A stretch of DNA of 64,000 nucleotides, taken from Rheinheimera sp. SA_1 (GTDB lineage: Bacteria > Pseudomonadota > Gammaproteobacteria > Enterobacterales > Alteromonadaceae). Below are positions 1,858-18,506 of the stretch, in pieces (positions within the stretch are counted from its first letter, which is position 1; each line of letters opens with the position of its first letter). The DNA lies in the NCBI RefSeq assembly GCF_001669775.1, contig NZ_LXWK01000015.1, positions 558,001-622,000 of the forward strand, in the 5' to 3' direction. The position numbers and the translations under genes are program-made. The notes under the pieces are model-generated. The model ran no database searches, was not told the DNA's origin, and was given only the letters and a program-made list of their open reading frames with translations.

Positions 1858-1895
1858 CAGGCGCTCTTAGCTGCTGAAATCTTGCTGCAGGCATG

Positions 1896-6224: not shown

Positions 6225-6954
6225 CCACCACTATATTTTGGCCATTCACATAACGGGCTAAATCTGACAGCAAAAAAATAACAGGGCCACATACATCCTC
6301 AGCCTGCAACATCCCTGTGCCGCAGGTATGTTGCAGATACTTCTGTTGAAACACATCAGGCTGATTATCTGCGATACCGCCTGGGCTAACAGAGTTAACC
6401 CTAAAATCGGAATTTCTGACATACTTTGTGAAATAGCGGTTCAAATGAATGATTGCAGATTTGATCGCCGCATACTCAACCGGCATGGTCATCTTTGTAT
6501 CTTGATAAAGCTCGAACTTAGGAGCAACCAAGCCATAAACAGACGACAAATTCACTAGCGACAAAGGTTTTTGATGTTGCTGAAAGTACGTTGTTGCTTG
6601 CTGGCAAAATAGATAGGCAGCTCCCAAATGTAGACTCACAGTTTCATTAAATGCAGCCATAGATAATTGAGCAACAGAGGTACCATACTGAGGCCCTCTT
6701 GGATAAGTGCAGTTTACAGCACCATCCAGTTGAGGTAATTTCGCAAACAACGCCATGGTTTGCTCTTCGTCAGTGAAATCTGTTTCATGAAACTGCAAAT
6801 GCTTGTGTTCCTGACCAAGCTTTTTTGTCAAAATATCTACACTCAGGTCTACAGCGACGACCAAAGCACCTTGTTGCAGTACCTTATCCACCAGAACTGA
6901 ACCAAGCTTACCCGCAGCGCCAGCGATTAGAATGACTTTATTCTTAAGCAACAT
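6205..6954 (-). CDS. Short-chain dehydrogenase/reductase (PtmA-like position)
   Basis: 249 residues, standard SDR length. It has the cofactor motif IAGAAGKLGSVL, NLSSVYG with the active-site Ser, and a YAAIKSAI segment carrying the Tyr-x3-Lys pair (Y161, K165). The end VNGQNIVVDDGFTL is typical of classical SDRs. Campylobacter legionaminic-acid loci carry an SDR called PtmA next to the CMP-sugar synthetase, and this gene is likewise directly downstream of the legF-like gene, overlapping it by 11 bases. The reaction of PtmA is not well defined, so no symbol is given. A role in keto-group reduction on a sugar intermediate is likely. AGAGG precedes the ATG. Confidence 0.78.
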   Translation of the reverse strand: MLLKNKVILIAGAAGKLGSVLVDKVLQQGALVVAVDLSVDILTKKLGQEHKHLQFHETDFTDEEQTMALFAKLPQLDGAVNCTYPRGPQYGTSVAQLSMAAFNETVSLHLGAAYLFCQQATTYFQQHQKPLSLVNLSSVYGLVAPKFELYQDTKMTMPVEYAAIKSAIIHLNRYFTKYVRNSDFRVNSVSPGGIADNQPDVFQQKYLQHTCGTGMLQAEDVCGPVIFLLSDLARYVNGQNIVVDDGFTL

Positions 6955-7639
6955 GACCTGCCTCTTTCATCAAAGCTTCTGCAACCAAAAAGTCGTAGTG
7001 ATCGTCTATATCTACCGCTCGCTCTTTTGGTACTTCGATAGCAACAACTTTACCTGCAAAGACCCTGTCAGCACTCATAATAAATTCAGGAGTAGTGACA
7101 TAAACAACAGTTGTAATATCAAAAACCTGAGGAGCATCCTGGCGACGGTCAAAGCCACTACTGTCGCAAACGACCTCAACCCTTCCCTCCACAGTGGTCT
7201 TTACCATATTAAAATAAGGATTACGAGAAGCAGGAGTCACCGCAATACAAATATCGGCATCACTCTGTGCAAATTTATCTATAGCAGCCTGCACATCTTC
7301 GATGGCACGAAGTGGGCTGGTCGCAGGCAGACTGATAAAAGTATCAAAATCACCGACCTGTTCCCTGACCCAACAGACCGCGTGGCGCCATGAGAGCCAC
7401 TCTGCACTTGTGTCCGTAGCCAATTCTGCTGGGCGTGGAATCAAAAGAGCTCCGGCAGATTGGGCTATTGTCGCAATTTCATCATCATCAGTGGACACAA
7501 AGACATGTTGAATACCTTCCACTGCTTTTGCAGTTTCAATGGAATAACATATCAGTGGTTTGTTATTTAACAGCTTAATATTCTTACGGGGCAACCCTTT
7601 AGAACCGCCTCTGGCAAAGATAAATGCATAACTGGACAT
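6944..7639 (-). CDS. legF: Acylneuraminate/legionaminate cytidylyltransferase
   Basis: 231 residues. The N-terminus FIFARGGSKGLPRKN is the CTP-binding signature of CMP-nonulosonic acid synthetases, followed by KPLICYSIE and LPATSPLRA. The enzyme couples CTP and a nonulosonic acid to give the CMP-sugar donor used by Maf or GT52-type transferases. Pathway neighbours (a NeuB/LegI-type synthase, a PtmE-type guanylyltransferase and a LegG-type epimerase) favour legionaminic-acid-like over sialic acid. It overlaps the downstream SDR by 11 bases and lies 2 bases after the third Gfo/Idh/MocA gene. Sequence alone cannot separate LegF, NeuA and PseF substrates with certainty. Confidence 0.87.
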   Translation of the reverse strand: MSSYAFIFARGGSKGLPRKNIKLLNNKPLICYSIETAKAVEGIQHVFVSTDDDEIATIAQSAGALLIPRPAELATDTSAEWLSWRHAVCWVREQVGDFDTFISLPATSPLRAIEDVQAAIDKFAQSDADICIAVTPASRNPYFNMVKTTVEGRVEVVCDSSGFDRRQDAPQVFDITTVVYVTTPEFIMSADRVFAGKVVAIEVPKERAVDIDDHYDFLVAEALMKEAGHVA

Positions 7640-7641
7640 AA

Positions 7642-8625
7642 CTAAATGGCCTCTTTCGCAAGTTGTTTTAAGCGTTCGATTAATTTGACTACTTCCACTG
7701 CAGCTGCTAACGACACCGCGGCCGGTTTCTTTGTTTGAATACGATGTACAAAATCATTCAGCATATTCAGATACATAATGTTGCGATCATAAGAAGAGTC
7801 AGAATAAATCAACGTCTCACCTTCAGGACCTGAAATTATTACAGTATTTTTTTTCAAATCCCAACGTAAGCTTGCATCAGAACCAACTACACAACAAAAA
7901 CGCTGATCCGTTTTTTGAACTGCATCCATATGCACAAAACAGCTCACACCATCTGCTGTTCGCAATAACATATCAGCCTGTAACTCAACCTCTGTAGATA
8001 GCTCGGGCACTATTTTTGTCGTACAACTAACTGCATGCAGTTCACCAAACAAGGTGTGTAAATAATCGAACTCATGACTAAGCTCAAGCAAAACACCGCC
8101 ACCAAGCGCAGCTGATGCTGTCACCGAATGTTGATACTCTGTAAATTTACGCCAGTCAGGCAAATATTGCCCAACATGGGCGTAGATATGGAGCACCCGT
8201 CCCAACTTCATTTCAGTGAGTATCCGATTTACTACAGAAAAAGCGGGGAGGTAACGTAGACAATAGCCAACGCTAACCAGTGTGTTCTGAGCTTGCTGAA
8301 GCAAGTCCTCTGCGTGCTCAATACAATCTGAGACTGGTTTTTCCAATAAAACGGGAACACCAGCCTCAATAAAAGGCATGCTGTGCTGATGATGAAAACT
8401 GGATGGAGAAGCAACAATTGCAAAATCAGGATGGAGTTTCACGGCTTCACTTAGATTTATCTGGAAAACTGCTGCATCAGTAAACTCCAGCTCACGACCG
8501 CTACTTGATACCACATAGATGTCAGCCTCTGGAAATAAACTACGACAATTGACTAAATGACGATGCCCTATATTGCCGTAACCTACAATAACGATACGCC
8601 GCACCACTGCTACTGCCTGAAACAT
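7642..8625 (-). CDS. Gfo/Idh/MocA-family oxidoreductase (copy 3)
   Basis: 327 residues. The Rossmann motif is IVIVGYGNIGHRH, the catalytic motif LLEKPVSD (E95, K96, P97), and the second-domain element ELSHEFDYLHTLFG. The last differs from the N-x-x-H-x-I-D-L form seen in the other two copies, so this is a different subgroup. It sits between the ptmE-like and legF-like genes, separated from each by 2-3 bases, which places it in the centre of the core sugar pathway. It could oxidise the sugar nucleotide or the nonulosonic acid before a modification. No substrate can be read from the sequence. Confidence 0.77.
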   Translation of the reverse strand: MFQAVAVVRRIVIVGYGNIGHRHLVNCRSLFPEADIYVVSSSGRELEFTDAAVFQINLSEAVKLHPDFAIVASPSSFHHQHSMPFIEAGVPVLLEKPVSDCIEHAEDLLQQAQNTLVSVGYCLRYLPAFSVVNRILTEMKLGRVLHIYAHVGQYLPDWRKFTEYQHSVTASAALGGGVLLELSHEFDYLHTLFGELHAVSCTTKIVPELSTEVELQADMLLRTADGVSCFVHMDAVQKTDQRFCCVVGSDASLRWDLKKNTVIISGPEGETLIYSDSSYDRNIMYLNMLNDFVHRIQTKKPAAVSLAAAVEVVKLIERLKQLAKEAI

Positions 8626-8628
8626 AAC

Positions 8629-9702
8629 TCAGCCTGCAAAGCTATTTTGAAACGCGATTTCGACCTGTCGCTGGGCTCTTTTAAAATCATCCAGTTGGCC
8701 TATGTCAATCCAGTCATCATCAATACGATACTGGTTAACACGTAAATCTTTTTTCAGGCAACCTTTGATCAAATCAGGCATGTCTATAACCTCTTCAGGG
8801 CTTACTGTGGAGACTAATTCTGGGGATAATAGATAGATGCCAGCGTTAACCAGAAACTTATGCTTTGGTTTTTCAACAATATCAGTGATTTGACTACCTT
8901 GTGTCTGGATCACACCATAAGGCACTTGCTGTTCAAACTCCCGGACGCACATAGTTGCTACCCCTCCATGTTCTTCATGACAGGCCAACATTTGCAGGAA
9001 GTTTACATCCGTCAATAGATCGCCATTCATTACAAATAATGGTTTTTCAATCGCTGTACCATGCAATAATCCAAGAGCACCGGCAGTTCCTAAGGGTTTA
9101 TGTTCATGCAGATAACGGATAGTAACGCCGTAGCGACTGCCATCGCCAAAGTGTTCAGTGATTTGCTCGGAACGGTAGTGAGTGGAAATATAAAAATTAT
9201 GAAACCCTGCGTGGATAAAACGTTCAAGGATCAATTCCAGAATAGGTTTATCGCCCAGTTTTAGCATAGGTTTAGGACATAAATCTGTTAGTGGACGCAA
9301 ACGCGTGCCAAAACCACCCGCCATCAAGCAGACTGGATTATCAATCCGGGGTTTTTGCAACAGATCGTAAAGAAACATCACGTCACAAATCCGGTTATTC
9401 TCATCCAGCACAGGCAACTGCAACAACTGATGTTGCTCCATAAAACTCAATATTCTTGTTTTACTCCAGTCCAGACCTGCGACTTTAGGGGTACATTGCA
9501 TAACCGCGTCGACAGGTTCTGCCAGATTGACCTTCCGAATTAATGCCCTTCGCACATCACCATCACTGACAGTTCCAAGCAGCACATTGTCCTCTGTGGC
9601 TATTAACAAACTGCGTTTTCCTTCCCGATCTAAAATTTCTATAGCTTCAGCCAGAGGAGTATCGGGTGAAACGACGATATTGCCCCAGTTATTTGGTTTC
9701 AT
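8629..9702 (-). CDS. ptmE: CBS-domain sugar-1-phosphate nucleotidyltransferase (PtmE-like)
   Basis: 357 residues from the chosen start. Residues 1-120 form a CBS pair, followed by a nucleotidyltransferase domain starting MAGGFGTRLRPLTD near residue 128 with CPKPMLKLGDKP after it. This architecture matches Campylobacter PtmE, the glucosamine-1-phosphate guanylyltransferase that commits GDP-sugar to legionaminic acid. A longer frame reaches 9756, but the ATG at 9702 has a strong GGAGG eight bases upstream and reduces the overlap with the acyltransferase gene to 14 bases, so it is preferred. The CBS pair suggests adenine-nucleotide control of flux. GDP rather than UDP or dTDP use is inferred from the family. 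Confidence 0.82.
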   Translation of the reverse strand: MKPNNWGNIVVSPDTPLAEAIEILDREGKRSLLIATEDNVLLGTVSDGDVRRALIRKVNLAEPVDAVMQCTPKVAGLDWSKTRILSFMEQHQLLQLPVLDENNRICDVMFLYDLLQKPRIDNPVCLMAGGFGTRLRPLTDLCPKPMLKLGDKPILELILERFIHAGFHNFYISTHYRSEQITEHFGDGSRYGVTIRYLHEHKPLGTAGALGLLHGTAIEKPLFVMNGDLLTDVNFLQMLACHEEHGGVATMCVREFEQQVPYGVIQTQGSQITDIVEKPKHKFLVNAGIYLLSPELVSTVSPEEVIDMPDLIKGCLKKDLRVNQYRIDDDWIDIGQLDDFKRAQRQVEIAFQNSFAG

Positions 9703-10351
9703 TGTGCCCTCCACTTCGGCCAGATTTTCGACCATGAACGCTGCCTGCTTCCACATCTCTTAAAACCAAAGCACCAGCAGCAATTACAGCGCCAGATTTA
9801 ACGATAACTTGTTGAATCAACGTAGCATTTGCGCCAATAAAAACTTGAGATCCAGTGACAACTTCACCACACAATGTTGCACCTGGTGCTATATGGTTAC
9901 TTAAACCTATGCTGCAGTCATGTTCAATAGTTGCATTGGAATTAACAATACTGTTATCGGCAATACTGGCGTTTACTTGAATTACGGCACCAGCCATGAC
10001 CTGACAGCCTTCACCTAGAAAGGAATTCGAATCAACAAACGCGTAAGGGTGAATCAGACTGGCAAAGTTAAAACCTTTAGATTTTGCGTTGCAAAACAAC
10101 TGATGCCTTAGCTGGTTGCCTGGCATAAAACCGACAGCGTTCACCAACAGACAGGTTTCAGGATTTAGTCGTTCCAATTGTTCATCCCCACCTAAAACAG
10201 CAATGCCATTCCAGGTCCTTTCTCTGTCGCCGCTGAGTAAAGGACAACAAACGCCTGTCACTTCAAATTGAAGAAGACGAGCCATTGCCAGCAAAACCTT
10301 CGCATGACCACCAGCGCCAAGAAAAATTAGTGGTTTAACTGATGATGGCAT
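9689..10351 (-). CDS. legH: LegH/PglD/NeuD-type sugar acyltransferase
   Basis: 220 residues. A PglD-type N-terminal Rossmann-like domain (IFLGAGGHAKVLLAMA) is followed by hexapeptide repeats forming a left-handed beta-helix (for example VDSNSFLGEGCQVMAG and NHIAPGATLCGEV). Proteins of this type acetylate the 4-amino group of the bacillosamine-like sugar nucleotide using acetyl-CoA, which is step 3 of the legionaminic pathway. The catalytic His is probably in IEHDCSIG. It lies between ptmE-like and legI-like genes and overlaps both (14 and 25 bases). A NeuD-like O-acetyltransferase is the main alternative, but the full pathway needs an N-acetyltransferase and this is the only candidate in the window. 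Confidence 0.78.
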   Translation of the reverse strand: MPSSVKPLIFLGAGGHAKVLLAMARLLQFEVTGVCCPLLSGDRERTWNGIAVLGGDEQLERLNPETCLLVNAVGFMPGNQLRHQLFCNAKSKGFNFASLIHPYAFVDSNSFLGEGCQVMAGAVIQVNASIADNSIVNSNATIEHDCSIGLSNHIAPGATLCGEVVTGSQVFIGANATLIQQVIVKSGAVIAAGALVLRDVEAGSVHGRKSGRSGGHNETK

Positions 10352-11412
10352 ACAGCTTCCATAGCTTCATAGTCATAGCTGGCCTTGGTATAAAGCAAGT
10401 CCCAGTAAAGATCGGCATCAAGACCTGAGACGCTTCGGCTAGTCCCTAAAGTCTCGGGCGTAAACAGCTCTCCCTTTTTTACTGCTTTAAGCGCTACCAG
10501 ACGTTGTCTGGCAATCAGCCTGTTACAAAACTCTGCGGTTTGTGGCACCTTGCGACCATCTCCTAACATCTGATCAAGTTCACGGATATCAGCTACAAAT
10601 CTGGTCAATTCCTGGACATCAAGCGACGCTTTGTGATCTGGGCCTGGCAGGTCTTTACTCAAAGTGAAATGCTTTTCTATCACTGTAGCCCCTTTAGCAA
10701 CCGCAGCCAAAGAAGCCACATAACCGATAGTGTGATCTGAATAACCAACGGCAACCCCAAAGCACTTTTCCATACTTTGCATAGCGTTTAAGTTCACGTC
10801 CTGAGCTTGAGTCGGGTAACTACTAGTGCAGTGCAACAAAGTGACATAGTTGGCCAACGGCCTCCTGTTAACTTCCTGACTGAAGTACTGCAGTATCTGA
10901 GTTTTGTTAGCCGGAGGATTATCTTGACCCAAAGCAAAACAAATCACGGCCAAAGCAAATTCGATTTCGCCAAGGCTGGCCATGCCAGTGGAGAGAATGA
11001 TTGGCTTTCGTTGCCTTGCAACCTGCCAGACCAGAGGTGCATTGGTCAACTCACCGGATGGAATTTTGTAACGGGCTAAGTCCAGGCTCTGTAGAAAGCC
11101 GATACTTTCACTATCAAAACCCGTTGACATAAACTCAATGCCTATCGACTCACAGTGCTGCTTTAGTTTGCGAAATTCATCAAATGACAACTCTAACTTC
11201 TTCAACATTTCATATTGTGATTCATCAGCGGAGGTTGTCACTTTTTGATATTCTGCTTTTGGTGTTTTTTCTAAAACCAGCCGTTCCGTCTTAAATGTCT
11301 GAAATTTCACAGCATCAGCACCAGCGTTTTTGGCCGCATCAATCAACTGGCAAGCCAAATCAAGGCTTCCGTTATGGTTGACACCTGCTTCCGCTATAAC
11401 AAAAGTTTTCAT
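10327..11412 (-). CDS. legI: Legionaminate/N-acetylneuraminate-type synthase
   Basis: 361 residues. The N-terminal TIM-barrel signature of NeuB enzymes is clear: FVIAEAGVNHNGSLDLA, then DAVKFQTFKTE, then KIPSGE, STGMA, LHCTSSYP, GYSDHT and EKHFTL. The C-terminal 65 residues form the antifreeze-like SAF domain that closes the active site. The enzyme condenses phosphoenolpyruvate with a 6-carbon 2,4-diamino sugar to make a nine-carbon nonulosonic acid. LegI versus NeuB is decided by the pathway genes in the window. The ATG overlaps the stop of the PIG-L gene (ATGA), giving translational coupling. This is the defining gene of the cluster. Confidence 0.88.
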   Translation of the reverse strand: MKTFVIAEAGVNHNGSLDLACQLIDAAKNAGADAVKFQTFKTERLVLEKTPKAEYQKVTTSADESQYEMLKKLELSFDEFRKLKQHCESIGIEFMSTGFDSESIGFLQSLDLARYKIPSGELTNAPLVWQVARQRKPIILSTGMASLGEIEFALAVICFALGQDNPPANKTQILQYFSQEVNRRPLANYVTLLHCTSSYPTQAQDVNLNAMQSMEKCFGVAVGYSDHTIGYVASLAAVAKGATVIEKHFTLSKDLPGPDHKASLDVQELTRFVADIRELDQMLGDGRKVPQTAEFCNRLIARQRLVALKAVKKGELFTPETLGTSRSVSGLDADLYWDLLYTKASYDYEAMEAVCHHQLNH

Positions 11413-12077
11413 AAAATTTCCTTTAACAACACAAAGCTTTCTGCAGCATCAACGTTGCATTGAGCTCCCCTGAGTGTCAGCTTGGCGTTTACGGCTTCAA
11501 CACTTCTGGGAAAAGGATGGGCAAAGATCTCTGTGTGATACAGCAGACAGATAGATAACTTCGCTTTACGGAAATGGCTTACGTCAACAAAAACGTTGGG
11601 ATTAAAATGCACATTCAAAGGATCTAGCGAAAACTCAGACTCAGATAATGTCTCATAAGCTAACCACCTTTTCACGTACGGCGCTCTAAAACTTTTTGAC
11701 GCTGATACCATGGCATTAAACACCACCGCATGATCAGTGTGAACATCATATTTATAGGGCAGGTACAAGGTATCTGGCTGAATTCGTTCAAGACAGCACT
11801 TGAAATCGCTAACAAGAGTGCCGGTAGAATAGGTATCTAAACGACCCGCTACATACTGCAGCTGCGTTACCGAGTCAAACGCATAACTTTTGCTGACTTG
11901 GCTAATGATACGTTCCCGCTCAGAAATTTGCGCATCAGAATAGCCCTGGGAAGGGTCCATGCAACTGGCAATCAGCCAATGAATTTCGTCCCCAGCGGCT
12001 TTGTGTTTCAATAAAGTCCCACCACAACCTAAAGTTTCGTCATCCGGGTGGGGCGCAACTACTAGAACTTTTGTCAA
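11409..12077 (-). CDS. PIG-L/LmbE-family N-deacetylase
   Basis: 222 residues. The zinc-binding signature APHPDDETLGCGG is at residues 8-20, with a second metal region YKYDVHTDHAVVF near residue 119. Family members remove N-acetyl groups from GlcNAc-containing substrates or related amides. It is the first gene of the minus-strand sugar operon and is coupled to the legI-like gene by ATGA overlap. The start is TTG: an in-frame TGA lies just upstream, so there is no longer version, and an AAGGG precedes the TTG. Together with the divergent ATP-grasp gene it suggests removal of one N-acyl group and addition of another; that is inference. Confidence 0.82.
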   Translation of the reverse strand: MTKVLVVAPHPDDETLGCGGTLLKHKAAGDEIHWLIASCMDPSQGYSDAQISERERIISQVSKSYAFDSVTQLQYVAGRLDTYSTGTLVSDFKCCLERIQPDTLYLPYKYDVHTDHAVVFNAMVSASKSFRAPYVKRWLAYETLSESEFSLDPLNVHFNPNVFVDVSHFRKAKLSICLLYHTEIFAHPFPRSVEAVNAKLTLRGAQCNVDAAESFVLLKEIL

Positions 12078-12112
12078 ATCAGGACCCTTTTCTCAATCAA
12101 GCCATGAACACC

Positions 12113-12128
12113 TGTCAATCAGTTGACA
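12113..12128. promoter_or_regulatory. Divergent intergenic palindrome with TTGACA on both strands
   Basis: TGTCAA, four bases, then TTGACA form a perfect 6-bp inverted repeat between the divergent sugar operons. Each half reads as a consensus -35 box facing outward. No good -10 box is seen at 16-18 bases on either side, so promoter function is uncertain. It may instead be an operator. Confidence 0.3.
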
Positions 12129-12275
12129 CTCTATCTTTATAATCGGTATCTCGTTACATTATTATCAAAGACTAAGGCAATAAGTACACCACATTTTCTG
12201 CATTGCTACTACATTGCAGAAAATTGCGGCCGATATAGACCAAAGTTGAATTGGAAACCTAGCGGAAATGGCATT

Positions 12276-12971
12276 ATGACGATTGATGATAAAAAGATGT
12301 TTTGGGAACAATCCTACCTAAACCATGACAATTTTATGTTTTATCCACATGAAGAAATCATTCGTTTTACCGCAAAATATATAGCTAAACGCACAGGATT
12401 AGAGCAAGTAGAATGGCGGTGTAAAAGCGATGCTAAGGTTCTGGATTTGGGATGTGGCATTGGGCGTCATGTGGTTTTTGTTGCAAAAATGGGGATAGAT
12501 ATTTGTGGTATAGATCTGTCGGAAACCGCCATTGCTGTTGCAAAAACCTGGTTAGAAAAAGAAAACCTTGGTAATCAGGCTAAGCTTCAATGTGCCGATA
12601 TAAGGTTTCAACCTTGGCCAGACCAAGAGTTTGATTTTGTGATGAGTCATGGCGTACTGGATAGTATGCCATTTGATGTTGCATGTGCAGCGGTAAAAGA
12701 AACTGCCAGAGTTTGCAAACCTGGAGCGCTGTTTTATTGTGATTTAATCAGTAGTGAAGACTCATGGCATGGTCCGGATTATTGTGGTGAGGAAGTCGTT
12801 CAGACATCTCATGAATTTGGCACCATTCAGTCCTATTTCAACCCAGAAAAAATTTCCCAGTTATTTACTCCATTCTTCACTATTTTAGAGACTACGTTGA
12901 TAAAACGTATGGATACCAAGAGCGGTCAATTCCATTCTCGTTTTCATCTGATCCTCCAACGGTGCAATTAA
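12276..12971 (+). CDS. Class I SAM-dependent methyltransferase
   Basis: 231 residues from the ATG at 12276. SAM-binding motif I is VLDLGCGIGRHVVF, followed by GIDLSETAI and FDFVMSHGVLDSM, typical of the Methyltransf_11/25 group. The frame extends to a TTG at 12123, but that extension runs through the divergent promoter region and has no domain-like sequence, so the internal ATG is preferred. It opens the plus-strand sugar operon and ends 1 base before the TylF-like gene. Likely it methylates a hydroxyl, amine or acyl group of the surface sugar. Small-molecule acceptor is inferred from context only. Confidence 0.72.
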   Translation: MTIDDKKMFWEQSYLNHDNFMFYPHEEIIRFTAKYIAKRTGLEQVEWRCKSDAKVLDLGCGIGRHVVFVAKMGIDICGIDLSETAIAVAKTWLEKENLGNQAKLQCADIRFQPWPDQEFDFVMSHGVLDSMPFDVACAAVKETARVCKPGALFYCDLISSEDSWHGPDYCGEEVVQTSHEFGTIQSYFNPEKISQLFTPFFTILETTLIKRMDTKSGQFHSRFHLILQRCN

Positions 12972-12972
12972 T

Positions 12973-13662
12973 ATGAACAAACCATTATCTTTAAATGATC
13001 CAATGCGGCATTTTGAAAAATATATAAATCGTCAGAGCATGACCAGGTTCTTAGCCAGATATGAGTTGTTTAAATTACAGCAACCCATTAAAGGCTGTAT
13101 CGTCGAGTGTGGTGTTCATCACGGCGCAGGTTTGATGAGCTGGGCGAAACTATCAGCAGGTTTAGAGCCTTACGCTTTGGATCGCCGCATTATTGGATTT
13201 GATACTTTTACCGGCTTCCCCGCAGTACATGACGAAGACAAAACTGGCGACCAATCTGACAATGGCGCTCTGAAAGCCGGAGGCTTTGACACAGGTTATG
13301 ATGTTTATCAGGAACTGAACGAATTAATTGCCGAATATGATCAAAACCGTTACCTGAATCATTTGCAGAAAGTATTTATGGTCAAGGGAGATGCGACCAT
13401 CACTATTCCTCAGTTTATACAAGAACATCCTTACGTGCTTGTCAGCCTGTTATTTCTGGACTTCGATTTGTATGAGCCAACTAAAACAGCACTACAGCAT
13501 TTTTTACCTAGAATGTGCAAAGGTTCGATAATTGCGTTTGATGAAGTGAATAACCCATGGTGGCCAGGTGAAACAAAAGCACTGCTAGAGGTATTGGACT
13601 TATCGAAGTATTCACTCCAGAGATTCAGTTTTGATCCGAATATCTCCTATATCGTGCTTTGA
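12973..13662 (+). CDS. TylF/MycF-like O-methyltransferase
   Basis: 229 residues. The pattern GCIVECGVHHGAG, then IIGFDTFTGFP, then LLFLDFDLYEPTK and FDEVNNPWWPGE matches TylF/MycF-type methyltransferases, which are metal-dependent and methylate sugar hydroxyls in macrolides; members also occur in glycan clusters. The acidic residues of LDFDLY and FDEVN are the probable metal ligands. It lies 1 base after the first methyltransferase and 12 before the ATP-grasp gene. Two methyltransferases in one operon suggest two separate methylations, or one on the sugar and one on its acyl group. Substrate unknown. Confidence 0.75.
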   Translation: MNKPLSLNDPMRHFEKYINRQSMTRFLARYELFKLQQPIKGCIVECGVHHGAGLMSWAKLSAGLEPYALDRRIIGFDTFTGFPAVHDEDKTGDQSDNGALKAGGFDTGYDVYQELNELIAEYDQNRYLNHLQKVFMVKGDATITIPQFIQEHPYVLVSLLFLDFDLYEPTKTALQHFLPRMCKGSIIAFDEVNNPWWPGETKALLEVLDLSKYSLQRFSFDPNISYIVL

Positions 13663-13674
13663 CAGGAGCATTAC

Positions 13675-14571
13675 ATGCTAAGGTTTTTGGTTGAAGCTTC
13701 TGGTTGCCTGACCTCTCATTATTTAATAGCTGCAATACAACAAGCCGGCCATCAGGCTATAGCTTCAGATATTCAGGAAGAGATCGCAGCCCGCCATATG
13801 GCAGATGATTTTATTTTGATGCCTTCGGCGAAAGACCCATTACTGTGGGAAAAAACTATTGAACTAATGCGCAGCCACCGTATTGATGTGGTAATTCCCA
13901 CCTTCGACGATACGTTGACCGGATGGTCTGAACGTAAAGAATTGTTCGCTGCAATGGGTATACATGTGATGATCTCTGATCATCACACTATTAAGACCTG
14001 TACAGATAAATGGTTAACCTATTCCCATTTCAAAAACCATCAACTCCCTATGCCACTGACCAGCACTGAACAAGTGTATCCTTTAATTAAACCAAGACTG
14101 GGGCGAGGAAGCGCAGGAGTCAGAGTTGAACAGAATGCCGTAGCTATGCAGGGTCATATTTCTCAGCAATTGCTGCAGGGACGTGAATACACTGTTGATG
14201 TACTGGTTGGTATCAATAGAAAACCACTTTGTATCGTCCCCCGTTACAGAGCCTCTGTCCGTGAAGGTAAATCGATTGTTGGCGTGGTCGAAATATCTGA
14301 CGAAACAAGCAGACTGGTGCACAAGGTGTGTGAAAGTTTTACCTTCAAAGGCCCCGTGAATATCCAACTCATCGACGATGTAACACAAGGACTACAGGTG
14401 ATTGAAATCAATCCACGGTTAGGAGGAGGTTCAGCACTCGCATTCGCGGCCTCAACGAATTGGATCCCAGCCATGATAGCTATATTTATTGACAACATTG
14501 AGCCCAAAATTCCTCCCGTACAAAACGGAATGAAGATGTACCGCTATTATGCTGAACACTTTGTTAACTGA
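13675..14571 (+). CDS. ATP-grasp carboxylate ligase
   Basis: 298 residues. It has the layout of the carbamoyl-phosphate-synthase-like ATP-grasp fold: an N-terminal part starting RFLVEASGCLTSHYLI, the ATP lid region LIKPRLGRGSAGVRVE near residue 140, EYTVDVLVG near 175, and the metal-binding IEINPRLGGGSALA near 240. Such ligases activate a carboxylate as acyl phosphate and join it to an amine. In a nonulosonic-acid locus an attractive job is adding an unusual acyl or amino-acid group to a freed amino group, matching the PIG-L deacetylase. CAGGAG precedes the start. It overlaps the HAD gene by 23 bases. Confidence 0.72.
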   Translation: MLRFLVEASGCLTSHYLIAAIQQAGHQAIASDIQEEIAARHMADDFILMPSAKDPLLWEKTIELMRSHRIDVVIPTFDDTLTGWSERKELFAAMGIHVMISDHHTIKTCTDKWLTYSHFKNHQLPMPLTSTEQVYPLIKPRLGRGSAGVRVEQNAVAMQGHISQQLLQGREYTVDVLVGINRKPLCIVPRYRASVREGKSIVGVVEISDETSRLVHKVCESFTFKGPVNIQLIDDVTQGLQVIEINPRLGGGSALAFAASTNWIPAMIAIFIDNIEPKIPPVQNGMKMYRYYAEHFVN

Positions 14572-15211
14572 GCTAAACAGGAAAACCATCAGTCATATAG
14601 GCTTTGATTTGGATGGCACCTTGTACGATGAAGCAGACTATGTCATTCAGGCATATGAGCTGATAAGCGCCTACTTTGCGAAGCAGCTGAACATTGATGC
14701 CGCTGCGGTGCATCAAAAGCTATTTCAGCGATGGCAAGAAAAAGGCAGTAGTTATCCCTTCATTTTTTCAGAACTACTCGATCAGTATACGATGGGCAAA
14801 GAGCACATTCAGACCATGGTAAGTGAAGCGGTAAAAATTTATCGCTCAACACCAGCAAAATTAGAATTGCCGCAATCGAGTATCGATATGCTTGATCAAT
14901 TAAAGCCACATTTTTCACTTTTTTTAATCACGGATGGCCAGGTAGCTACACAGAATTATAAAATCAAGCAGCTCGGTTTGTTGCGTTGGTTTGAACCTCA
15001 AAACATCGTTATTACGGGCAGTATAGCCCCTGATGCAGCCAAACCGTCAACCAAAGCTTTGACACAGCTACCAGAACTAGCGCTGGTTCCTGCAAGTCAG
15101 GTTATGTATGTTGGAGACAGAACTGTAGATCAGGATTTTTCTACCACCGCAGGTTTCGTGTTTTGCCAGCATCGCATTGTATCCAAAGAGAATCATTATG
15201 CAAAAACGTAA
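14549..15211 (+). CDS. HAD-superfamily phosphatase
   Basis: 220 residues. Motif I is GFDLDGTLYDEA (nucleophile D20, acid D22), motif II is FLITDG, and the motif IV region is MYVGDRTVDQDFS. A helical cap lies between. It would dephosphorylate a small metabolite. Nonulosonic-acid pathways can include a 9-phosphate phosphatase, but the LegI route does not need one, so an alternative is dephosphorylation of a product of the ATP-grasp or modification branch. It overlaps the ATP-grasp gene (23 bases) and the legG-like gene (14 bases), so it is tightly coupled to both. Confidence 0.72.
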   Translation: MLNTLLTELNRKTISHIGFDLDGTLYDEADYVIQAYELISAYFAKQLNIDAAAVHQKLFQRWQEKGSSYPFIFSELLDQYTMGKEHIQTMVSEAVKIYRSTPAKLELPQSSIDMLDQLKPHFSLFLITDGQVATQNYKIKQLGLLRWFEPQNIVITGSIAPDAAKPSTKALTQLPELALVPASQVMYVGDRTVDQDFSTTAGFVFCQHRIVSKENHYAKT

Positions 15212-16355
15212 AGTATTGGCAGTAACAGGCATAAGGTCTGAATACGATATCATGTCCAGTGTTTACCAGGCTGTTGCTGCTCACCCATATTTAGATCTGG
15301 CATTAGTGGTCACAGGTGCCCATCTTTCACCCGCACATGGCTACACCCTGAATGATATCAAAGCAGACGGCTTCAAAGTGCTTGGAGAGATCCATAGTTT
15401 ACTGAGCTCAGATACAGCCTCTTCCCGGGTGAAAGGTCTGGCAATTCAACTTCTGGGGTTGATTCAATTGATTGAACAGTACAAACCTGACTGGTTACTT
15501 GTATTGGGAGATCGTGAAGAATCAATGACTACAGCACTTGCCGGGGCCTACATGAACATTGCTGTTGCCCACTTATGTGGAGGAGACAGAGTGGTAGGTA
15601 ATGTCGATGATCAGGTAAGGCATGCAGTGAGTAAGCTGGTTCATCTGCATTTAACCAGCAATATGGAGAGTAGTGAACGCTTGTTGCGCATGGGAGAGCA
15701 GCCGTTTCGGGTTCACACTATTGGGAATCCCGGTCTGGACCGTTTACGCACCACTCCCTTAATCAGTTTGCCTATCCTGGCAAAACAGCTGAACTTTCCA
15801 GAGCTCAAATCCCCATTTATTGTGGTGATTCAACACGTTATATCAACGGAAATAGAAGAGGCCTATCAACAGATGAGCATTACAATGCGGGCACTCAAAA
15901 AGCTAAACCTCCCCGCTGTAGTTATTTACCCCAATAGTGACGCTGGGGGCTATGAGTTAATCCGCGCTATCGAAGAATACCGTCAATATCCTCTAATTCA
16001 TATCGCTAAAAACATCCCTCGCCTGCAATTTGTCAACTTGCTAAAGCATGCGTCATGTATGGTCGGGAACTCCAGTGCTGGGATCCTGGAAGCCCCCTTA
16101 CTCAAGTTACCGGTGGTTAATATTGGAAACAGACAAAAAGGACGCCTTCATGCGAACAACGTCAGTTTTGTTAGTCATTCAGAAGATGAAATTATTGCTT
16201 CTGTCACCAGAGCAGTATTTGACAAAGAATATCGCCGGCATATTCAGCAGTGCTCCAATCCATACGGTGACGGACATTCGTCAGAGAAAGTTGCAGCTCT
16301 GTTGGCCGAGCTTCCACTGGATGCAAATTTCATGATTAAAGATATAACTTACTGA
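15198..16355 (+). CDS. legG: Hydrolysing NDP-sugar 2-epimerase (LegG/NeuC-type)
   Basis: 385 residues from the ATG at 15198, which is preceded by AAAGAG; a TTG at 15177 gives seven extra residues with no support. The N-terminus KVLAVTGIRSEYDIMSSV is the hallmark of hydrolysing UDP-GlcNAc 2-epimerases, and later segments LVLGDREESM, HLCGGDRV and MVGNSSAGILEA complete the GT-B-like fold. In the legionaminic pathway LegG releases NDP and inverts C2, producing 2,4-diacetamido-2,4,6-trideoxymannose for LegI. NeuC is the alternative, but the LegB/LegC/PtmE set supports LegG. It ends 22 bases from the convergent legC-like gene. Confidence 0.86.
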   Translation: MQKRKVLAVTGIRSEYDIMSSVYQAVAAHPYLDLALVVTGAHLSPAHGYTLNDIKADGFKVLGEIHSLLSSDTASSRVKGLAIQLLGLIQLIEQYKPDWLLVLGDREESMTTALAGAYMNIAVAHLCGGDRVVGNVDDQVRHAVSKLVHLHLTSNMESSERLLRMGEQPFRVHTIGNPGLDRLRTTPLISLPILAKQLNFPELKSPFIVVIQHVISTEIEEAYQQMSITMRALKKLNLPAVVIYPNSDAGGYELIRAIEEYRQYPLIHIAKNIPRLQFVNLLKHASCMVGNSSAGILEAPLLKLPVVNIGNRQKGRLHANNVSFVSHSEDEIIASVTRAVFDKEYRRHIQQCSNPYGDGHSSEKVAALLAELPLDANFMIKDITY

Positions 16356-16377
16356 AGTCCAAGCTGACAGCTTTACA

Positions 16378-17523
16378 TTAAAGCGTTTCGCGAACTGAAC
16401 TGGGCAAATTAACCAAATGCTCAGCCAGATGCTCAGTTACAGCTAATTTGGTGCGAATACAGTGCTGATAGATAGCAAGTTGATGCATGGGTCGCCAGGC
16501 TGGGCGCAACATAATGCCCTGCTCTGCAGCACTCTCCAGCCATTGTGTTTTTACTTCAGCTGAAGGACAAATCACGGCATTGAGCCAGTAGTTGGACCGG
16601 GCATAAGTCGGCTCTTTGATACAACGAAACTCAGAGCCTGCAAAAAAGTCCTGATACAAGGCAGCGATTTCGCGTTTATCCGCGATGAAACCATCCAGTT
16701 GTTCCAGTTGCCCGCAGCCCAAAGCTGCATTCAGATTTGGCATACGATAATTAAAGCCATAGTCGTCATGCACAAATTCATAACTATGTGGGATTTTGGC
16801 TGTGGTCGTCAGATGTTTAAGCGCCATGCCGTCATTAGCATCAGCACAAAGCACCATGCCACCACCACCCGTAGTAATAATTTTATTCCCATTAAAACTT
16901 AAAGTGCCAAAACGGCCAAAAGTACCGGTATGTCTACCTTTATACAAAGAACCCAGACTTTCAGCAGCATCTTCAACTAACACTAACTGCCATTGCTGGC
17001 ACAGTAGCATTAGCTCATCCAGCTGAACCGGGTGACCAAAAGTATGCATAGGTACAACTGCCCTTACCCTGCGCTGACTTTTGATATGAATACAGCCTTT
17101 TTCCGTCAATTCACATTGTTGCTGTAAAAAATCAGCCAGCGACTTTGGACATAAACCAAGACTAAGCTCAGAGACATCAACAAATACTGGCTCTGCACCT
17201 GACCAATGAATAGCATTACAGGTAGCGACAAAAGTAAATGACTGAGTCACCACCAAATCATTGTTTATCACGCCTGCCGCATATAATGCGGCTTGCAGCG
17301 CTGCAGTGCCATTCATGACCGCGACGGCTTTAGATACCTTGCAGTACGAGGCTAGATCAGCTTCAAACCGGTCAACATAAGCTCCTACACTGGAAACAAA
17401 AGTAGAGTCTAAAGTGTGCTGTACATAAGCTGATTCCTGTCCGACAAAACGAGGAGCATGCAAAGGGATAAAATCCTTTGTCTGGTAAAGCTCTCTGATA
17501 AATTCAAACAAGTGCTGGTGCAT
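16378..17523 (-). CDS. legC: DegT/DnrJ-family sugar aminotransferase (LegC-type)
   Basis: 381 residues. The PLP Lys is in LSFNGNKIITTGGGG (K214), preceded by LVEDAAESLGS, the usual Asp and Ala-rich region of DegT/DnrJ/EryC1 aminotransferases. Its start is FIPLHAPRFVGQE. It would transfer an amino group from glutamate to C4 of a 4-keto-6-deoxy sugar nucleotide, the product of the neighbouring legB-like dehydratase. The two genes are 8 bases apart in the expected reaction order. It is the last gene of the flaG-fliD-fliS-fliT-maf-legB-legC unit. PseC and PglE are close relatives; pathway context decides the name. Confidence 0.85.
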   Translation of the reverse strand: MHQHLFEFIRELYQTKDFIPLHAPRFVGQESAYVQHTLDSTFVSSVGAYVDRFEADLASYCKVSKAVAVMNGTAALQAALYAAGVINNDLVVTQSFTFVATCNAIHWSGAEPVFVDVSELSLGLCPKSLADFLQQQCELTEKGCIHIKSQRRVRAVVPMHTFGHPVQLDELMLLCQQWQLVLVEDAAESLGSLYKGRHTGTFGRFGTLSFNGNKIITTGGGGMVLCADANDGMALKHLTTTAKIPHSYEFVHDDYGFNYRMPNLNAALGCGQLEQLDGFIADKREIAALYQDFFAGSEFRCIKEPTYARSNYWLNAVICPSAEVKTQWLESAAEQGIMLRPAWRPMHQLAIYQHCIRTKLAVTEHLAEHLVNLPSSVRETL

Positions 17524-17531
17524 AACTGCGT

Positions 17532-18506
17532 CTACTTATTATATTGGCTAGCTTTATAGCGAGCCAGATGCTGTGGCTGAGTGAACCAGTCGATAGTGCG
17601 GCGTAAGCCTTCAGTCAAATCAAGTTCTGGTGAAAAACCAGTTAATTGTACTAGTTTGCTGTTGTCGCCCCATAATCTAAACACTTCAGAGCCCGGGGGG
17701 CGCAATCGTTGTTCATCCATGATGAAATCAACATCACTTTTCATCAGGTTGCGGATCAAATCTAAAGTATCGGCGACAGATATCTCATAATTTGAACTGA
17801 TATTCACAGTCTCACCAATTGCTGCATCGCAACGACTGAGTAATTCAAAACCTGCACAGGTATCAAGGACATAATTAAAATCACGGGTTGGACTGGTATC
17901 CCCCAACTTAATCTGTGTCACACCGGTTGCAATCTGACTGATTATCGTCGGGATCACTGCTCTTGCAGACTGACGAGGTCCATAAGTATTAAACGGCCTG
18001 GCAATGATGACTGGCAGCCCGAAGGCACTGTAATAACTCATGGCCATCGCATCAGCACCAATTTTGGAAGCGCTGTAAGGTGACTGTGCCTGCAAAGGGT
18101 GTTTTTCGTCGATAGGAACATATAACGCCGTACCATAAACCTCGCTGGTTGAAGTCTGAATAAAACGCTTCACGCCAGAATCTAAAGCCGCCTGACACAT
18201 ATTAAGAGTGCCGGTTACGTTTGTTTCAACATAACTTTGAGGCGCAGCATAAGAAAATGGTATAGCAATTAAAGCTGCCAGATGAAAAACAGTGTCGATC
18301 CCTTGGCATAATTTGCGGCAGAAAAATGGATCCCGGATGTCCCCTGCTACAACTTCAAGGTTGTTATTTGATACACCATCAAGCCAACCCCATGAATTAA
18401 AAGAGTTGTAACAAACCAAAGCACGAACCTGATAACCTTGCTGGAGCAGCATTTCAACCAGATGTGAACCTATAAATCCATCTGCACCAGTCACTAATAC
18501 TTGCAT
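17532..18506 (-). CDS. legB: NAD-dependent 4,6-dehydratase (LegB-type)
   Basis: 324 residues. The Rossmann motif is VLVTGADGFIGSHL. The catalytic Tyr-x3-Lys is in SPYSASKIGADAM (Y144, K148), with TSTSEVYG supplying the Thr-Ser-Glu part of the dehydratase active site. The enzyme removes water from GDP- or UDP-GlcNAc to give the 4-keto-6-deoxy intermediate. The frame extends to 18563, but the ATG at 18506 has AAGGAG at good spacing and does not run into maf, so it is used. Ten bases separate it from the maf stop. Residue SWGWLDG near 38 fits the LegB subgroup, as I recall it. Confidence 0.86.
   Translation of the reverse strand: MQVLVTGADGFIGSHLVEMLLQQGYQVRALVCYNSFNSWGWLDGVSNNNLEVVAGDIRDPFFCRKLCQGIDTVFHLAALIAIPFSYAAPQSYVETNVTGTLNMCQAALDSGVKRFIQTSTSEVYGTALYVPIDEKHPLQAQSPYSASKIGADAMAMSYYSAFGLPVIIARPFNTYGPRQSARAVIPTIISQIATGVTQIKLGDTSPTRDFNYVLDTCAGFELLSRCDAAIGETVNISSNYEISVADTLDLIRNLMKSDVDFIMDEQRLRPPGSEVFRLWGDNSKLVQLTGFSPELDLTEGLRRTIDWFTQPQHLARYKASQYNK

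What the first reader, a model, noticed from the sequence alone, without database searches (positions are those of the whole stretch)
6944..18506. Complete legionaminic-type CMP-sugar pathway with many extra modifying enzymes
All seven activities of the GDP-sugar legionaminic route are visible (PtmE, LegB, LegC, LegH, LegG, LegI, LegF types), split over three transcription units. Around them are three distinct Gfo/Idh/MocA oxidoreductases, an SDR, a PIG-L deacetylase, an ATP-grasp ligase, a HAD phosphatase and two methyltransferases. The core pathway needs none of these, so the final sugar is likely a derivative not seen in the Campylobacter or Legionella systems. This is the best candidate in the window for an undescribed system.
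Basis: partly seen in the sequence, partly recalled or inferred. Interest (0 to 1): 0.72.

Follow-up and report, generated by a model that had tools for sequence, protein, structure and literature searches.

The report
Legionaminic-type flagellin sugar with swapped acyl
Next to its flagellin genes this bacterium carries a complete pathway for a sialic-acid-like sugar plus an exchangeable gene cassette that probably removes one acetyl group and puts another acid in its place, so the finished flagellar sugar may be predictable from the genes.

Summary
In detail: all seven leg activities are present, beside Maf and four flagellins. The reading needs correcting. PtmF (one Gfo/Idh) and PtmA (the SDR) are not decorations: PtmF stands beside LegF in 18 of 40 related loci and PtmA in 17. 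That LegF type occurs only in loci with PtmF (26 of 26 rows), including E. coli O61 and O108, whose O antigens carry 8-epilegionaminic acid; an 8-epi sugar is likely. GfoA/GfoB belong to the genus's basic island.

The real additions are MT1, MT2, ATP-grasp, HAD, PIG-L and a variant LegG. The ATP-grasp recurs with this LegG type in 8 of 8 loci (three phyla), and in 0 of 40 control loci. In those 40, each of 9 PIG-L loci also has an acyl-installing gene: formyltransferase (5) or GNAT (4). One congener, G672, has PIG-L without a recognised installer; another, G679, showed the expected formyltransferase plus PIG-L.

Best reading: PIG-L removes the 5-N-acetyl, the ATP-grasp ligates another acid, MTs methylate, Maf transfers. 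Comparable sugars are known (5-N-formyl-Leg; Leg5GluNMe7Ac); I found no paper describing this cassette. The chemistry is inferred.

The parts
17532..18506 (-). LegB, GDP-GlcNAc 4,6-dehydratase type
   Evidence: TIGR04180 above cut-off; 83-84% identical in G672, G676 and G678
16378..17523 (-). LegC aminotransferase
   Evidence: TIGR04181 above cut-off; 89-90% identical in G672, G676 and G678
15177..16355 (+). LegG' (variant hydrolysing 2-epimerase), part of the cassette
   Evidence: TIGR03568 above cut-off; variant clade and motifs GDREE/GGD
14549..15211 (+). HAD-family phosphatase, cassette
   Evidence: PF13419; DLDGT motif in the translation; HAD next to the ATP-grasp in other loci
13675..14571 (+). 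ATP-grasp carboxylate-amine ligase type, cassette
   Evidence: PF02655/PF15632/PylC-like_N; nearest folds 2pn1 and PylC; orthologues in 7 other loci
12973..13662 (+). MT2, sugar O-methyltransferase type
   Evidence: PF05711/PF13578; CalS11 TDP-rhamnose 3'-O-methyltransferase, E 2.7e-42
12276..12971 (+). MT1, SAM methyltransferase (likely start 12276; ORF from 12123)
   Evidence: PF13649/PF08241; homologues align from about residue 45-55
11409..12077 (-). PIG-L/LmbE-type N-deacetylase
   Evidence: PF02585; the only PIG-L match in the genome; solved relatives are TT1542 (hypothetical) and diacetylchitobiose deacetylases
10327..11412 (-). LegI, nonulosonic acid synthase
   Evidence: TIGR03569 above cut-off
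9689..10351 (-). LegH, NeuD/PglB-type N-acetyltransferase
   Evidence: TIGR03570 above cut-off
8629..9756 (-). PtmE, CBS + nucleotidyltransferase (GDP-sugar forming type)
   Evidence: PF00571 + PF00483
7642..8625 (-). PtmF, Gfo/Idh/MocA oxidoreductase, part of the PtmF-LegF-PtmA unit
   Evidence: PF01408/PF22725; 18 of 40 loci
6944..7639 (-). LegF, CMP-NulO synthetase of the 'A' type
   Evidence: PF02348; clade with E. coli O61 and O108 loci
6205..6954 (-). PtmA, SDR
   Evidence: NF006619 above cut-off; NF050062 PtmA below cut-off
5223..6224 (-). GfoA oxidoreductase, part of the basic island of the genus
   Evidence: PF01408; G052, G676, G678
4239..5210 (-). GfoB oxidoreductase, part of the basic island of the genus
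   Evidence: PF01408; G052, G676, G678
3468..4217 (-). GDSL/SGNH hydrolase
   Evidence: PF13472; no hit in the pieces read from G052, G672, G676, G678 (over 45 bits) and G679
2422..3474 (-). polysialyltransferase-like protein
   Evidence: PF07388; also in G052, G672, G676 and G678
18517..21342 (-). Maf flagellin glycosyltransferase, the only MptE-like match in the genome
   Evidence: PF20157 + PF01973
24045..28252 (-). four flagellin genes, likely acceptors
   Evidence: PF00669/PF00700 for the gene at 24045-24872; the other three by their alike translations

Best explanation
The island makes a CMP-activated legionaminic-type nonulosonic acid for Maf-dependent flagellin glycosylation. In this genome an exchanged cassette changes the N-acyl group. 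Proposed order: PtmE, LegB, LegC and LegH build the GDP-linked 2,4-diamino sugar with 4-N-acetyl. PIG-L removes the 2-N-acetyl group (the future C5). The ATP-grasp ligase joins a free carboxylic acid, most likely an amino acid or a phosphorylated hydroxy acid, to that amine. HAD removes a phosphate from the donor or product. LegG', an altered 2-epimerase, accepts the changed substrate; LegI adds phosphoenolpyruvate. PtmF and PtmA probably invert C8, and LegF activates with CTP. MT2 O-methylates the sugar and MT1 methylates the acyl group or the sugar. Maf transfers the product to flagellin. Shown here: gene content, module boundaries, coupling of the genes across genomes, and subfamily splits. 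Inferred: every chemical step, the position (C5), the nature of the acid, the 8-epi configuration and the acceptor.
For: (1) Coupling: ATP-grasp orthologues (about 41% identity or more) lie with a LegG of the variant clade in 8 of 8 loci, from Pseudomonadota, Bacillota and Campylobacterota; 0 of 40 loci read around other LegG/NeuC-type genes of the order have the ATP-grasp, the HAD or MT2. (2) Acyl swap: all 9 PIG-L loci among those 40 hold an acyl-installing gene between LegC and LegI (formyltransferase 5, GNAT 4). Of 26 PIG-L-negative loci with LegC, LegG and LegI, 23 hold only LegG there; 3 hold a FemAB-like gene and have no LegH hit. (3) G679, a congener, has LegC-LegG-formyltransferase-PIG-L-LegI near Maf, as I expected before fetching it. 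(4) The LegG variant has PIG-L in 12 of 12 evaluable loci, against 5 of 42 others (6 of 42). (5) Position: LegH is kept; Halorubrum, with a possible formyltransferase gene next to legG, makes 5-N-formyl-Leg (PMC6137143 passages); C. botulinum flagellin carries Leg5GluNMe7Ac (PMC5207245 passage). (6) Fold: after 2pn1, PylC is nearest; two L-amino-acid ligases appear at ranks 17 and 40 among many biotin-dependent carboxylases. (7) Precedents: an ATP-grasp gene is needed for full flagellin modification in Shewanella (sfmE) and in C. difficile (CDR20291_0245). (8) C8.
Against: No product structure is known to me for any ATP-grasp locus found here. PIG-L also occurs with ordinary LegG (5 of 34 in the order), so the LegG change is not needed for every swap. 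The LegG variant also occurs without the ATP-grasp: in four of the 40 control loci (with a GNAT instead) and in G672. G672 has PIG-L but no recognised acyl-installing gene (methyltransferase, FAD oxidase-like, DegT, weak sulfotransferase match) and no ATP-grasp in the 40 kb read; a weak ATP-grasp hit lies about 32 kb from its LegB. The ATP-grasp loci were found by searching for the ATP-grasp, so their number is not an unbiased frequency. The role of HAD is a guess. PtmA is missing beside LegF in one PtmF locus (L083). Campylobacter PtmF/PtmA are assigned to GDP-GlcNAc supply (recalled; the Plesiomonas paper places PtmA there), and the C. coli LegF is only 31% identical to the Plesiomonas LegF, which speaks against one role for PtmF/PtmA everywhere. 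The genome also has a complete pseudaminic acid set close by, so the flagellin might carry Pse instead or as well.
Confidence: 0.6

Rival explanations
1. Same cassette, but the new acyl group sits on N7 (from C4 of the hexose): PIG-L removes the acetyl set by LegH.
For: Leg5Ac7AcAla, with an alanyl group on N7, is mentioned for Vibrio vulnificus (PMC7371886 passage). LegH was not detected by similarity search in the Aliiglaciecola locus.
Against: LegH is kept in the window and in 8 of the 9 PIG-L loci of the order sample. Where LegH is missing, another acyl gene is present (a formyltransferase at its place in L105, a FemAB-like gene in L114-L116). The known formyl and Glu examples are at N5.
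Confidence: 0.15
2. The ligated acid is not an amino acid but a phosphorylated hydroxy acid such as phosphoglycerate; HAD removes the phosphate and the two methyltransferases make an O-methylated acyl group. This is a sub-variant of the best explanation.
For: HAD follows the ATP-grasp in 7 of 8 loci, and also stands beside more distant ATP-grasps in G670, G679 and G595, whereas MT1 and MT2 relatives were not found next to it in the Vibrio, Psychromonas and Ensifer loci. In Shewanella, whose flagellin modification needs an ATP-grasp gene, the outer moiety is methylated and reported as free of nitrogen, on a nonulosonic acid with a single acetyl group (PMC3765264 passages). Dimethylglyceric acid on Campylobacter pseudaminic acid is recalled.
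Against: The nearest enzyme by fold with a known reaction joins amino acids (PylC), and C. botulinum uses N-methyl-glutamate on this sugar.
Confidence: 0.3
3. PtmF and PtmA supply glucosamine phosphate for GDP-GlcNAc, as proposed for Campylobacter, and the sugar is ordinary legionaminic acid at C8.
For: Published assignment (recalled); [quoted passage not shown]
Against: 20 of 40 loci have a LegF of the other type and no PtmF; 17 of these 20 still have PtmE, LegC, LegG and LegI. PtmF presence follows the subtype of LegF, the last enzyme. E. coli O61/O108 loci with this unit belong to serogroups whose O antigens carry 8eLeg, and A. baumannii elaABC accompanies 8eLeg where lgaG accompanies Leg.
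Confidence: 0.4
4. The extra genes serve an unrelated surface polysaccharide that merely shares the locus.
For: GlyphosT, glycerol-3-phosphate cytidylyltransferase and a polyST-like gene lie to the left. Some related loci are not flagellar (the Psychromonas one lies among LPS-type genes).
Against: The cassette sits inside the LegC-LegI interval and includes LegG itself; the same module recurs in a locus with flagellins and a Maf-like hit in Paenibacillus.
Confidence: 0.07

Closest known systems
Campylobacter/Plesiomonas GDP-route legionaminic flagellin pathway (PtmA, PtmE, PtmF, LegBCFGHI)
   Same: All enzymes and, for the LegI-to-PtmA stretch, the same order as Plesiomonas Table 5 (PMC4481668); flagellar location.
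   Different: LegG replaced by a variant and inverted with MT1, MT2, ATP-grasp and HAD; PIG-L added; no GlmU-like gene at the PtmA end.
8-epilegionaminic acid loci: E. coli O61/O108 (elg) and A. baumannii lga + elaABC
   Same: PtmF-LegF-PtmA unit with the same LegF clade as E. coli O61 and O108.
   Different: Those are O-antigen or capsule loci; the three E. coli loci read here gave no PIG-L, ATP-grasp or HAD hit. ElaABC sequences were not compared.
C. botulinum flagellin Leg5GluNMe7Ac
   Same: Predicted chemistry: 5-N substituent with an amide-linked acid, a methyl group, 7-N-acetyl, flagellin.
   Different: Its gene set was not examined here; the structure and a PtmH-like methyltransferase gene are cited from paper passages.
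Halorubrum PV6 5-N-formyl-legionaminic acid
   Same: A possible acyl-transferring gene directly after legG; substituent at C5.
   Different: Formyltransferase, not ATP-grasp; N-glycan of an archaeon; the identity of HrrPV6_1052 is not given in the main text.
Shewanella oneidensis sfmABCDE and C. difficile type B flagellin cluster
   Same: An ATP-grasp gene in a flagellin modification cluster whose loss alters the flagellin glycan; in Shewanella with a methyltransferase and a nonulosonic acid.
   Different: No PIG-L, HAD or LegG linkage is described in the passages; the C. difficile glycan is not a nonulosonic acid. Sequences were not compared.

Membership tests
GDP-route legionaminic acid pathway | LegB, LegC, LegH, LegG, LegI, LegF and PtmE all present | tested here: met
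   LegF and PtmE by domain and context, below or without an NCBIfam cut-off
GDP-route legionaminic acid pathway | GDP-linked intermediates and Leg5Ac7Ac as product | not testable with these tools
   needs enzyme assays or mass spectrometry
GDP-route legionaminic acid pathway | usual LegG motifs (GDR[FYSV]E with GGE) | tested here: not met
   window has GDREE and GGD; 34 of 40 order loci have the usual motifs, 4 have GDRED/GGD, 2 could not be typed
8-epilegionaminic acid type loci | PtmF-LegF(A)-PtmA unit | tested here: met
   E. coli O61 and O108 loci
8-epilegionaminic acid type loci | L-glycero-D-galacto configuration of the sugar | not testable with these tools
   needs NMR
Maf-dependent flagellin O-glycosylation | Maf beside flagellar genes and a nonulosonic acid cluster | tested here: met
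   same site in G052, G672, G676, G678 and G679
C. botulinum-type Leg5GluNMe7Ac system | homologous ligase, deacetylase and methyltransferase genes | not tested
   no Clostridium genome was reached; only statements in papers
PIG-L plus acyl-installer pairs in leg loci (defined here) | PIG-L and an acyl-installing gene near LegG | tested here: met
   window: ATP-grasp with PIG-L; 9 of 9 PIG-L loci in the order sample; exception outside that sample: G672

The most novel reading that the evidence does not exclude
Legionaminic loci use a readable substitution code: PIG-L strips the C5 N-acetyl group and an exchangeable enzyme writes a new one (formyltransferase, GNAT, or ATP-grasp + HAD), with a matched LegG subfamily for acyl groups that are put on before the 2-epimerase step. 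The window holds the ATP-grasp version, giving an O-methylated 5-N-acyl (perhaps aminoacyl) 8-epilegionaminic acid on flagellin of which I found no description. Swapping at the same chromosomal site gives congeners different flagellar surface chemistries.
Probability: 0.45. Interest if true: 0.75.

Novelty: new variant of a known kind. Interest (0 to 1): 0.6.

Why it matters
Many nonulosonic acids are known as chemical structures with odd N-substituents, but I found no paper naming the gene that attaches an amino acid to one of them. If the PIG-L plus acyl-installer rule is right, the kind of substituent can be read from the genome. It also gives a defined enzyme set to test, and would suggest that the 'legionaminic acid like' glycan of Plesiomonas flagella, assigned by tandem mass spectrometry in the section I read, could be the 8-epimer. 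The flagellar surface is seen by phages and hosts, so exchange of this cassette within a genus is a plausible route of surface change.

Tried and rejected
Rejected: (a) all three Gfo/Idh and the SDR as decorations. (b) PIG-L as exclusive to the ATP-grasp module: 9 of 40 other loci have it, which led to the wider acyl-swap rule. (c) The ATP-grasp-positive LegGs as one strict clade: held together they fit slightly worse (p-AU 0.0425), because G672, which lacks the ATP-grasp, falls inside; only the larger variant clade is claimed, and it also holds four GNAT loci. (d) Recent foreign origin by base composition: gene G+C from GDSL to LegB is flat, about 0.39-0.46 (window 0.46), so composition gives no support. 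(e) Sequence search for a solved relative of GfoB gave none. (f) A DNA search of E. coli genomes with the window's own PtmA-LegF-PtmF found nothing; loci closer to E. coli were used instead. (g) Literature: no paper found that joins legionaminic acid with an ATP-grasp/PIG-L cassette; papers outside the open library were not searched. Weak spots: the LegF tree and the large LegG tree are quick trees with some long branches. Rows left out of the large LegG tree or its counts: L103 and L117 (no usable motif), L121 (like L123), the second LegG of H. marmotae (kept in the tree, not in the counts), and G735 (PIG-L not evaluable).

Full report
What is there. The window lies at G000:C12:558001-622000 of a 5.16 Mb genome. 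Pfam and NCBIfam confirm LegB, LegC, LegG, LegI, LegH, LegF and PtmE, and the extra PIG-L, two methyltransferases, ATP-grasp, HAD, SDR and three Gfo/Idh proteins. To the right are Maf (18517-21342), FliS, FliD and four flagellin genes. A search of the genome for MptE-like proteins found only this Maf, and a search for PIG-L only this PIG-L. The genome has two NeuB-family synthases; the other, about 5 kb outside the left edge, belongs to a pseudaminic acid set PseB, C, F, G and I, all above cut-offs.

Comparison inside the genus. Five of 22 genomes held for the genus, the window's among them, have a LegB (TIGR04180), and a sixth, G679, was reached through a weak ATP-grasp hit. The others were not examined for leg islands of another build. 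All six have a leg island next to Maf and flagellar genes. G676 and G678: Maf-LegB-LegC-LegG-LegI-LegH-PtmE-PtmF-LegF-PtmA-GfoA-GfoB-polyST, with GlyphosT further on. G052 is the same up to polyST, but no LegC was detected in the piece read. G672: LegC, a methyltransferase, LegG, a FAD oxidase-like gene, a DegT aminotransferase, PIG-L, a weak sulfotransferase match, LegI, LegH, PtmE, LegF, polyST. G679: LegC-LegG-formyltransferase-PIG-L-LegI-LegH-PtmE-LegF. Window: LegC, then the inverted block LegG'-HAD-ATP-grasp-MT2-MT1, then PIG-L-LegI and onward. Identity of the window to G678 is 84% (LegB), 89% (LegC) and 81% (GlyphosT) on the two sides, but 33% (LegG), 55% (LegI), 51% (LegH), 60% (PtmE), 42% (PtmF), 61% (LegF), 55% (PtmA), 38% (GfoA), 44% (GfoB) and 58% (polyST) between them. 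This looks like a segment exchanged as a unit, though Maf outside it is also only 68%. A true ATP-grasp orthologue occurs in 1 of 22 genus genomes; three others have weak hits of 95-133 bits against 504.

The ATP-grasp module elsewhere. Strong orthologues (about 41% identity or more) are rare. Besides the window there was one in 295 genomes of the order (7 of 295 with any hit at 1e-15, the window included), none in 369 of the class (one hit at 32%), one in 398 of the phylum (4 of 398 with any hit at 1e-30, the window included), one in 72,556 plasmid records, and five loci in the species-representative collection, a search that depends on short peptide patterns and will miss relatives; one of these five appears to be the same Psychromonas contig as in the order search. 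That makes eight loci: window, Psychromonas, Paenibacillus cymbidii, Vibrio jasicida, Aliiglaciecola, Helicobacter marmotae (where the gene reads as two pieces), G735, and an Ensifer adhaerens plasmid. Gene order around it: HAD lies directly downstream in 7 of 8 (in Psychromonas by Pfam; in V. jasicida and Aliiglaciecola by weak similarity), and in H. marmotae downstream of a second ATP-grasp; a LegG of the variant clade is present in 8 of 8; PIG-L in 7 of 7 evaluable (the G735 contig ends first). MT2 relatives lie beside it in Aliiglaciecola (60%) and G735 (56%). The Paenibacillus locus has flagellin, FliD-like and Maf-like hits around it, which supports a flagellar role there; the Psychromonas locus lies among LPS-type genes, so the sugar is not always flagellar.

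Controls. A profile of the variant LegG was run over 295 genomes of the order: G275 and the window score over 650 bits, and 55 further matches score 220-328. I read up to about 20 kb around 40 of these 55, from the top of the list with some low scorers left out; three more had been read before and 12 were not read. ATP-grasp 0 of 40, HAD 0 of 40, MT1 0 of 40, MT2 0 of 40, PIG-L 9 of 40, PtmF 18 of 40, PtmA 17 of 40, GfoA and GfoB 3 of 40 each (tblastn; PtmA counted above 60 bits). So PIG-L is not special to the module, but the ATP-grasp and HAD are.

PIG-L comes with an acyl gene. Of the 40 loci, 35 have LegC, LegG and LegI close together. All 9 with PIG-L have an extra acyl gene in the LegC-LegI interval: N-formyltransferase in L082, L083, L086, L099 and L105, and a GNAT in L081, L106, L112 and L113 (L081 also has a 3-hydroxyacyl-CoA dehydrogenase). 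Of 26 without PIG-L, 23 have only LegG there (up to 160 bases unaccounted), and 3 have a FemAB-like acyltransferase and no LegH hit. L105 has a second formyltransferase where LegH normally is. The simplest reading is one installing enzyme per amino group: LegH or its replacement for one, and a PIG-L partner for the other. G672, outside this sample, has PIG-L without an installer that Pfam recognises. G679 had first been counted as lacking PIG-L because my stretch ended too early. Its LegG grouped with the formyltransferase loci, so I expected formyltransferase plus PIG-L and fetched the next stretch: both are there. The expectation was not written in the notebook beforehand.

The LegG variant. 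In a tree of 16 rows the LegGs split 100/100 into nine (eight with the ATP-grasp, and G672) and seven others. Held as a clade of the eight alone they fit worse, p-AU 0.0425. All nine have GDREE and GGD where the seven have GDR[FY]E and GGE. Four of the 40 order loci also have variant motifs (GDRED, GGD), fall in the same clade (SH-aLRT 99, quick tree), and all four have PIG-L and a GNAT but no ATP-grasp. PIG-L accompanies the variant in 6 of 6 order loci against 5 of 34 with the ordinary motif (Fisher p 1.2e-4), and in 12 of 12 against 5 of 42 over all loci (p 1.8e-8; 6 of 42 once G679 is corrected). These p values ignore shared ancestry. Because LegG works at C2 of the hexose, a changed LegG fits a changed group on the C2 nitrogen, which becomes N5 of the nine-carbon sugar. 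That step is inference.

Position and nature of the acyl group. Halorubrum PV6 makes 5-N-formyl-legionaminic acid and has a gene that possibly encodes the N-formyltransferase next to legG (PMC6137143, passages). C. botulinum flagellin carries 7-acetamido-5-(N-methyl-glutam-4-yl)-amino legionaminic acid (PMC5207245, passage). Both are at C5. The ATP-grasp model (pLDDT 78.5, pTM 0.80, with a poor stretch at 129-166) is nearest to 2pn1, of no stated activity beyond its title, then to PylC, an amino-acid amide ligase; L-amino-acid ligases appear at ranks 17 and 40 among many biotin-dependent carboxylases. Sequence search also puts 2pn1 first, then carbamoyl-phosphate synthases, then PylC. In Shewanella, where an ATP-grasp gene (sfmE) is needed for full flagellin modification, the outer group is reported as methylated and free of nitrogen (PMC3765264 passages); in C. 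difficile an ATP-grasp gene is needed for an amino-acid-bearing cap (PMC5207246 passages). So the acid may or may not be an amino acid. HAD beside the ligase hints at a phosphorylated acid or product. MT2 is a relative of CalS11, which methylates a nucleotide-bound sugar.

C8 configuration. LegF of the window belongs to a clade of 26 rows, all from loci with PtmF. The other 29 rows come from loci without it, apart from one LegF of the Ensifer plasmid, which has both types. In the 40 loci PtmF-LegF-PtmA stand together in 17 and PtmF-LegF alone in L083. E. coli genomes with a similar stretch: 23 of 5,426. Of three that I read, one is annotated with O61 and one with O108 wzx and wzy, and both LegFs fall in this clade. 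The O61 O antigen contains 8eLeg5Ac7Ac (PMC3628348 passage), and O108 likewise by the title of a paper in its reference list. In A. baumannii, lgaABCDEFG goes with Leg5Ac7Ac and lgaABCDEF plus elaABC with 8eLeg5Ac7Ac (PMC9676051 Table 7 passage). I did not compare ElaABC sequences. So the unit probably inverts C8. Against this stands the published role in GDP-GlcNAc supply in Campylobacter (recalled).

Novelty. The parts are known families and the product class is known. The ATP-grasp, HAD and LegG variant module, the PIG-L plus acyl-installer rule, and the tie between LegF type and PtmF/PtmA were not found in the papers searched (papers were seen as listings, passages, or the two sections, not in full). 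I call it a new variant of a known kind.

Noticed in passing
L003:9740-19276 (G000:C12, about 5 kb outside the left window edge): Pseudaminic acid set PseB, C, F, G, I and a GNAT, followed by a weakly carrier-protein-like gene, an SDR, an AMP-binding enzyme and a LuxE-type protein, which suggests an unusual acylated Pse.
   Followed up: partly
window 445-2315: Glycerol-3-phosphate cytidylyltransferase (TIGR01518 above cut-off) beside a CDP-glycerol glycerophosphotransferase-like gene. The latter is 81-82% identical in G672, G676 and G678: possible glycerophosphate decoration, a conserved flank of the exchanged segment.
   Followed up: partly
L039, L040 (G670, G679) and L013 (G595): Distant ATP-grasp + HAD pairs (26-30% identity to the window ATP-grasp) beside NeuB-family synthases in loci with flagellins. 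In G670 and G679 these are probably pseudaminic (their CMP-synthetases group with the genome's own PseF): the pair may also serve pseudaminic acid.
   Followed up: partly
L049 (Ensifer adhaerens plasmid pA): One locus with two CMP-sugar synthetases, one of each LegF type, the second inside a PtmF-LegF-PtmA unit.
   Followed up: no
L014:8814-9968 and L018:13046-14098: A second ATP-grasp-like gene in the Paenibacillus locus (judged from its N-terminal sequence only) and in the Helicobacter locus (PF15632): perhaps two acids are added.
   Followed up: no
G672 island, L044:332-6172: Variant LegG and PIG-L with a second DegT aminotransferase, a FAD amine-oxidase-like protein and a weak sulfotransferase match instead of the ATP-grasp: another decoration route at the same site.
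   Followed up: partly
L012, L015, L082 and L106 (gene before LegC): TIGR04180 LegB is rare (5 of 295 genomes of the order); the four leg loci whose gene before LegC I tested use a Polysacc_synt_2 type dehydratase instead.
   Followed up: no
window 2422-3474 and 3468-4217: A polyST-like protein is conserved in G052, G672, G676 and G678, but the GDSL hydrolase beside it was not found in the congener pieces read.
   Followed up: partly
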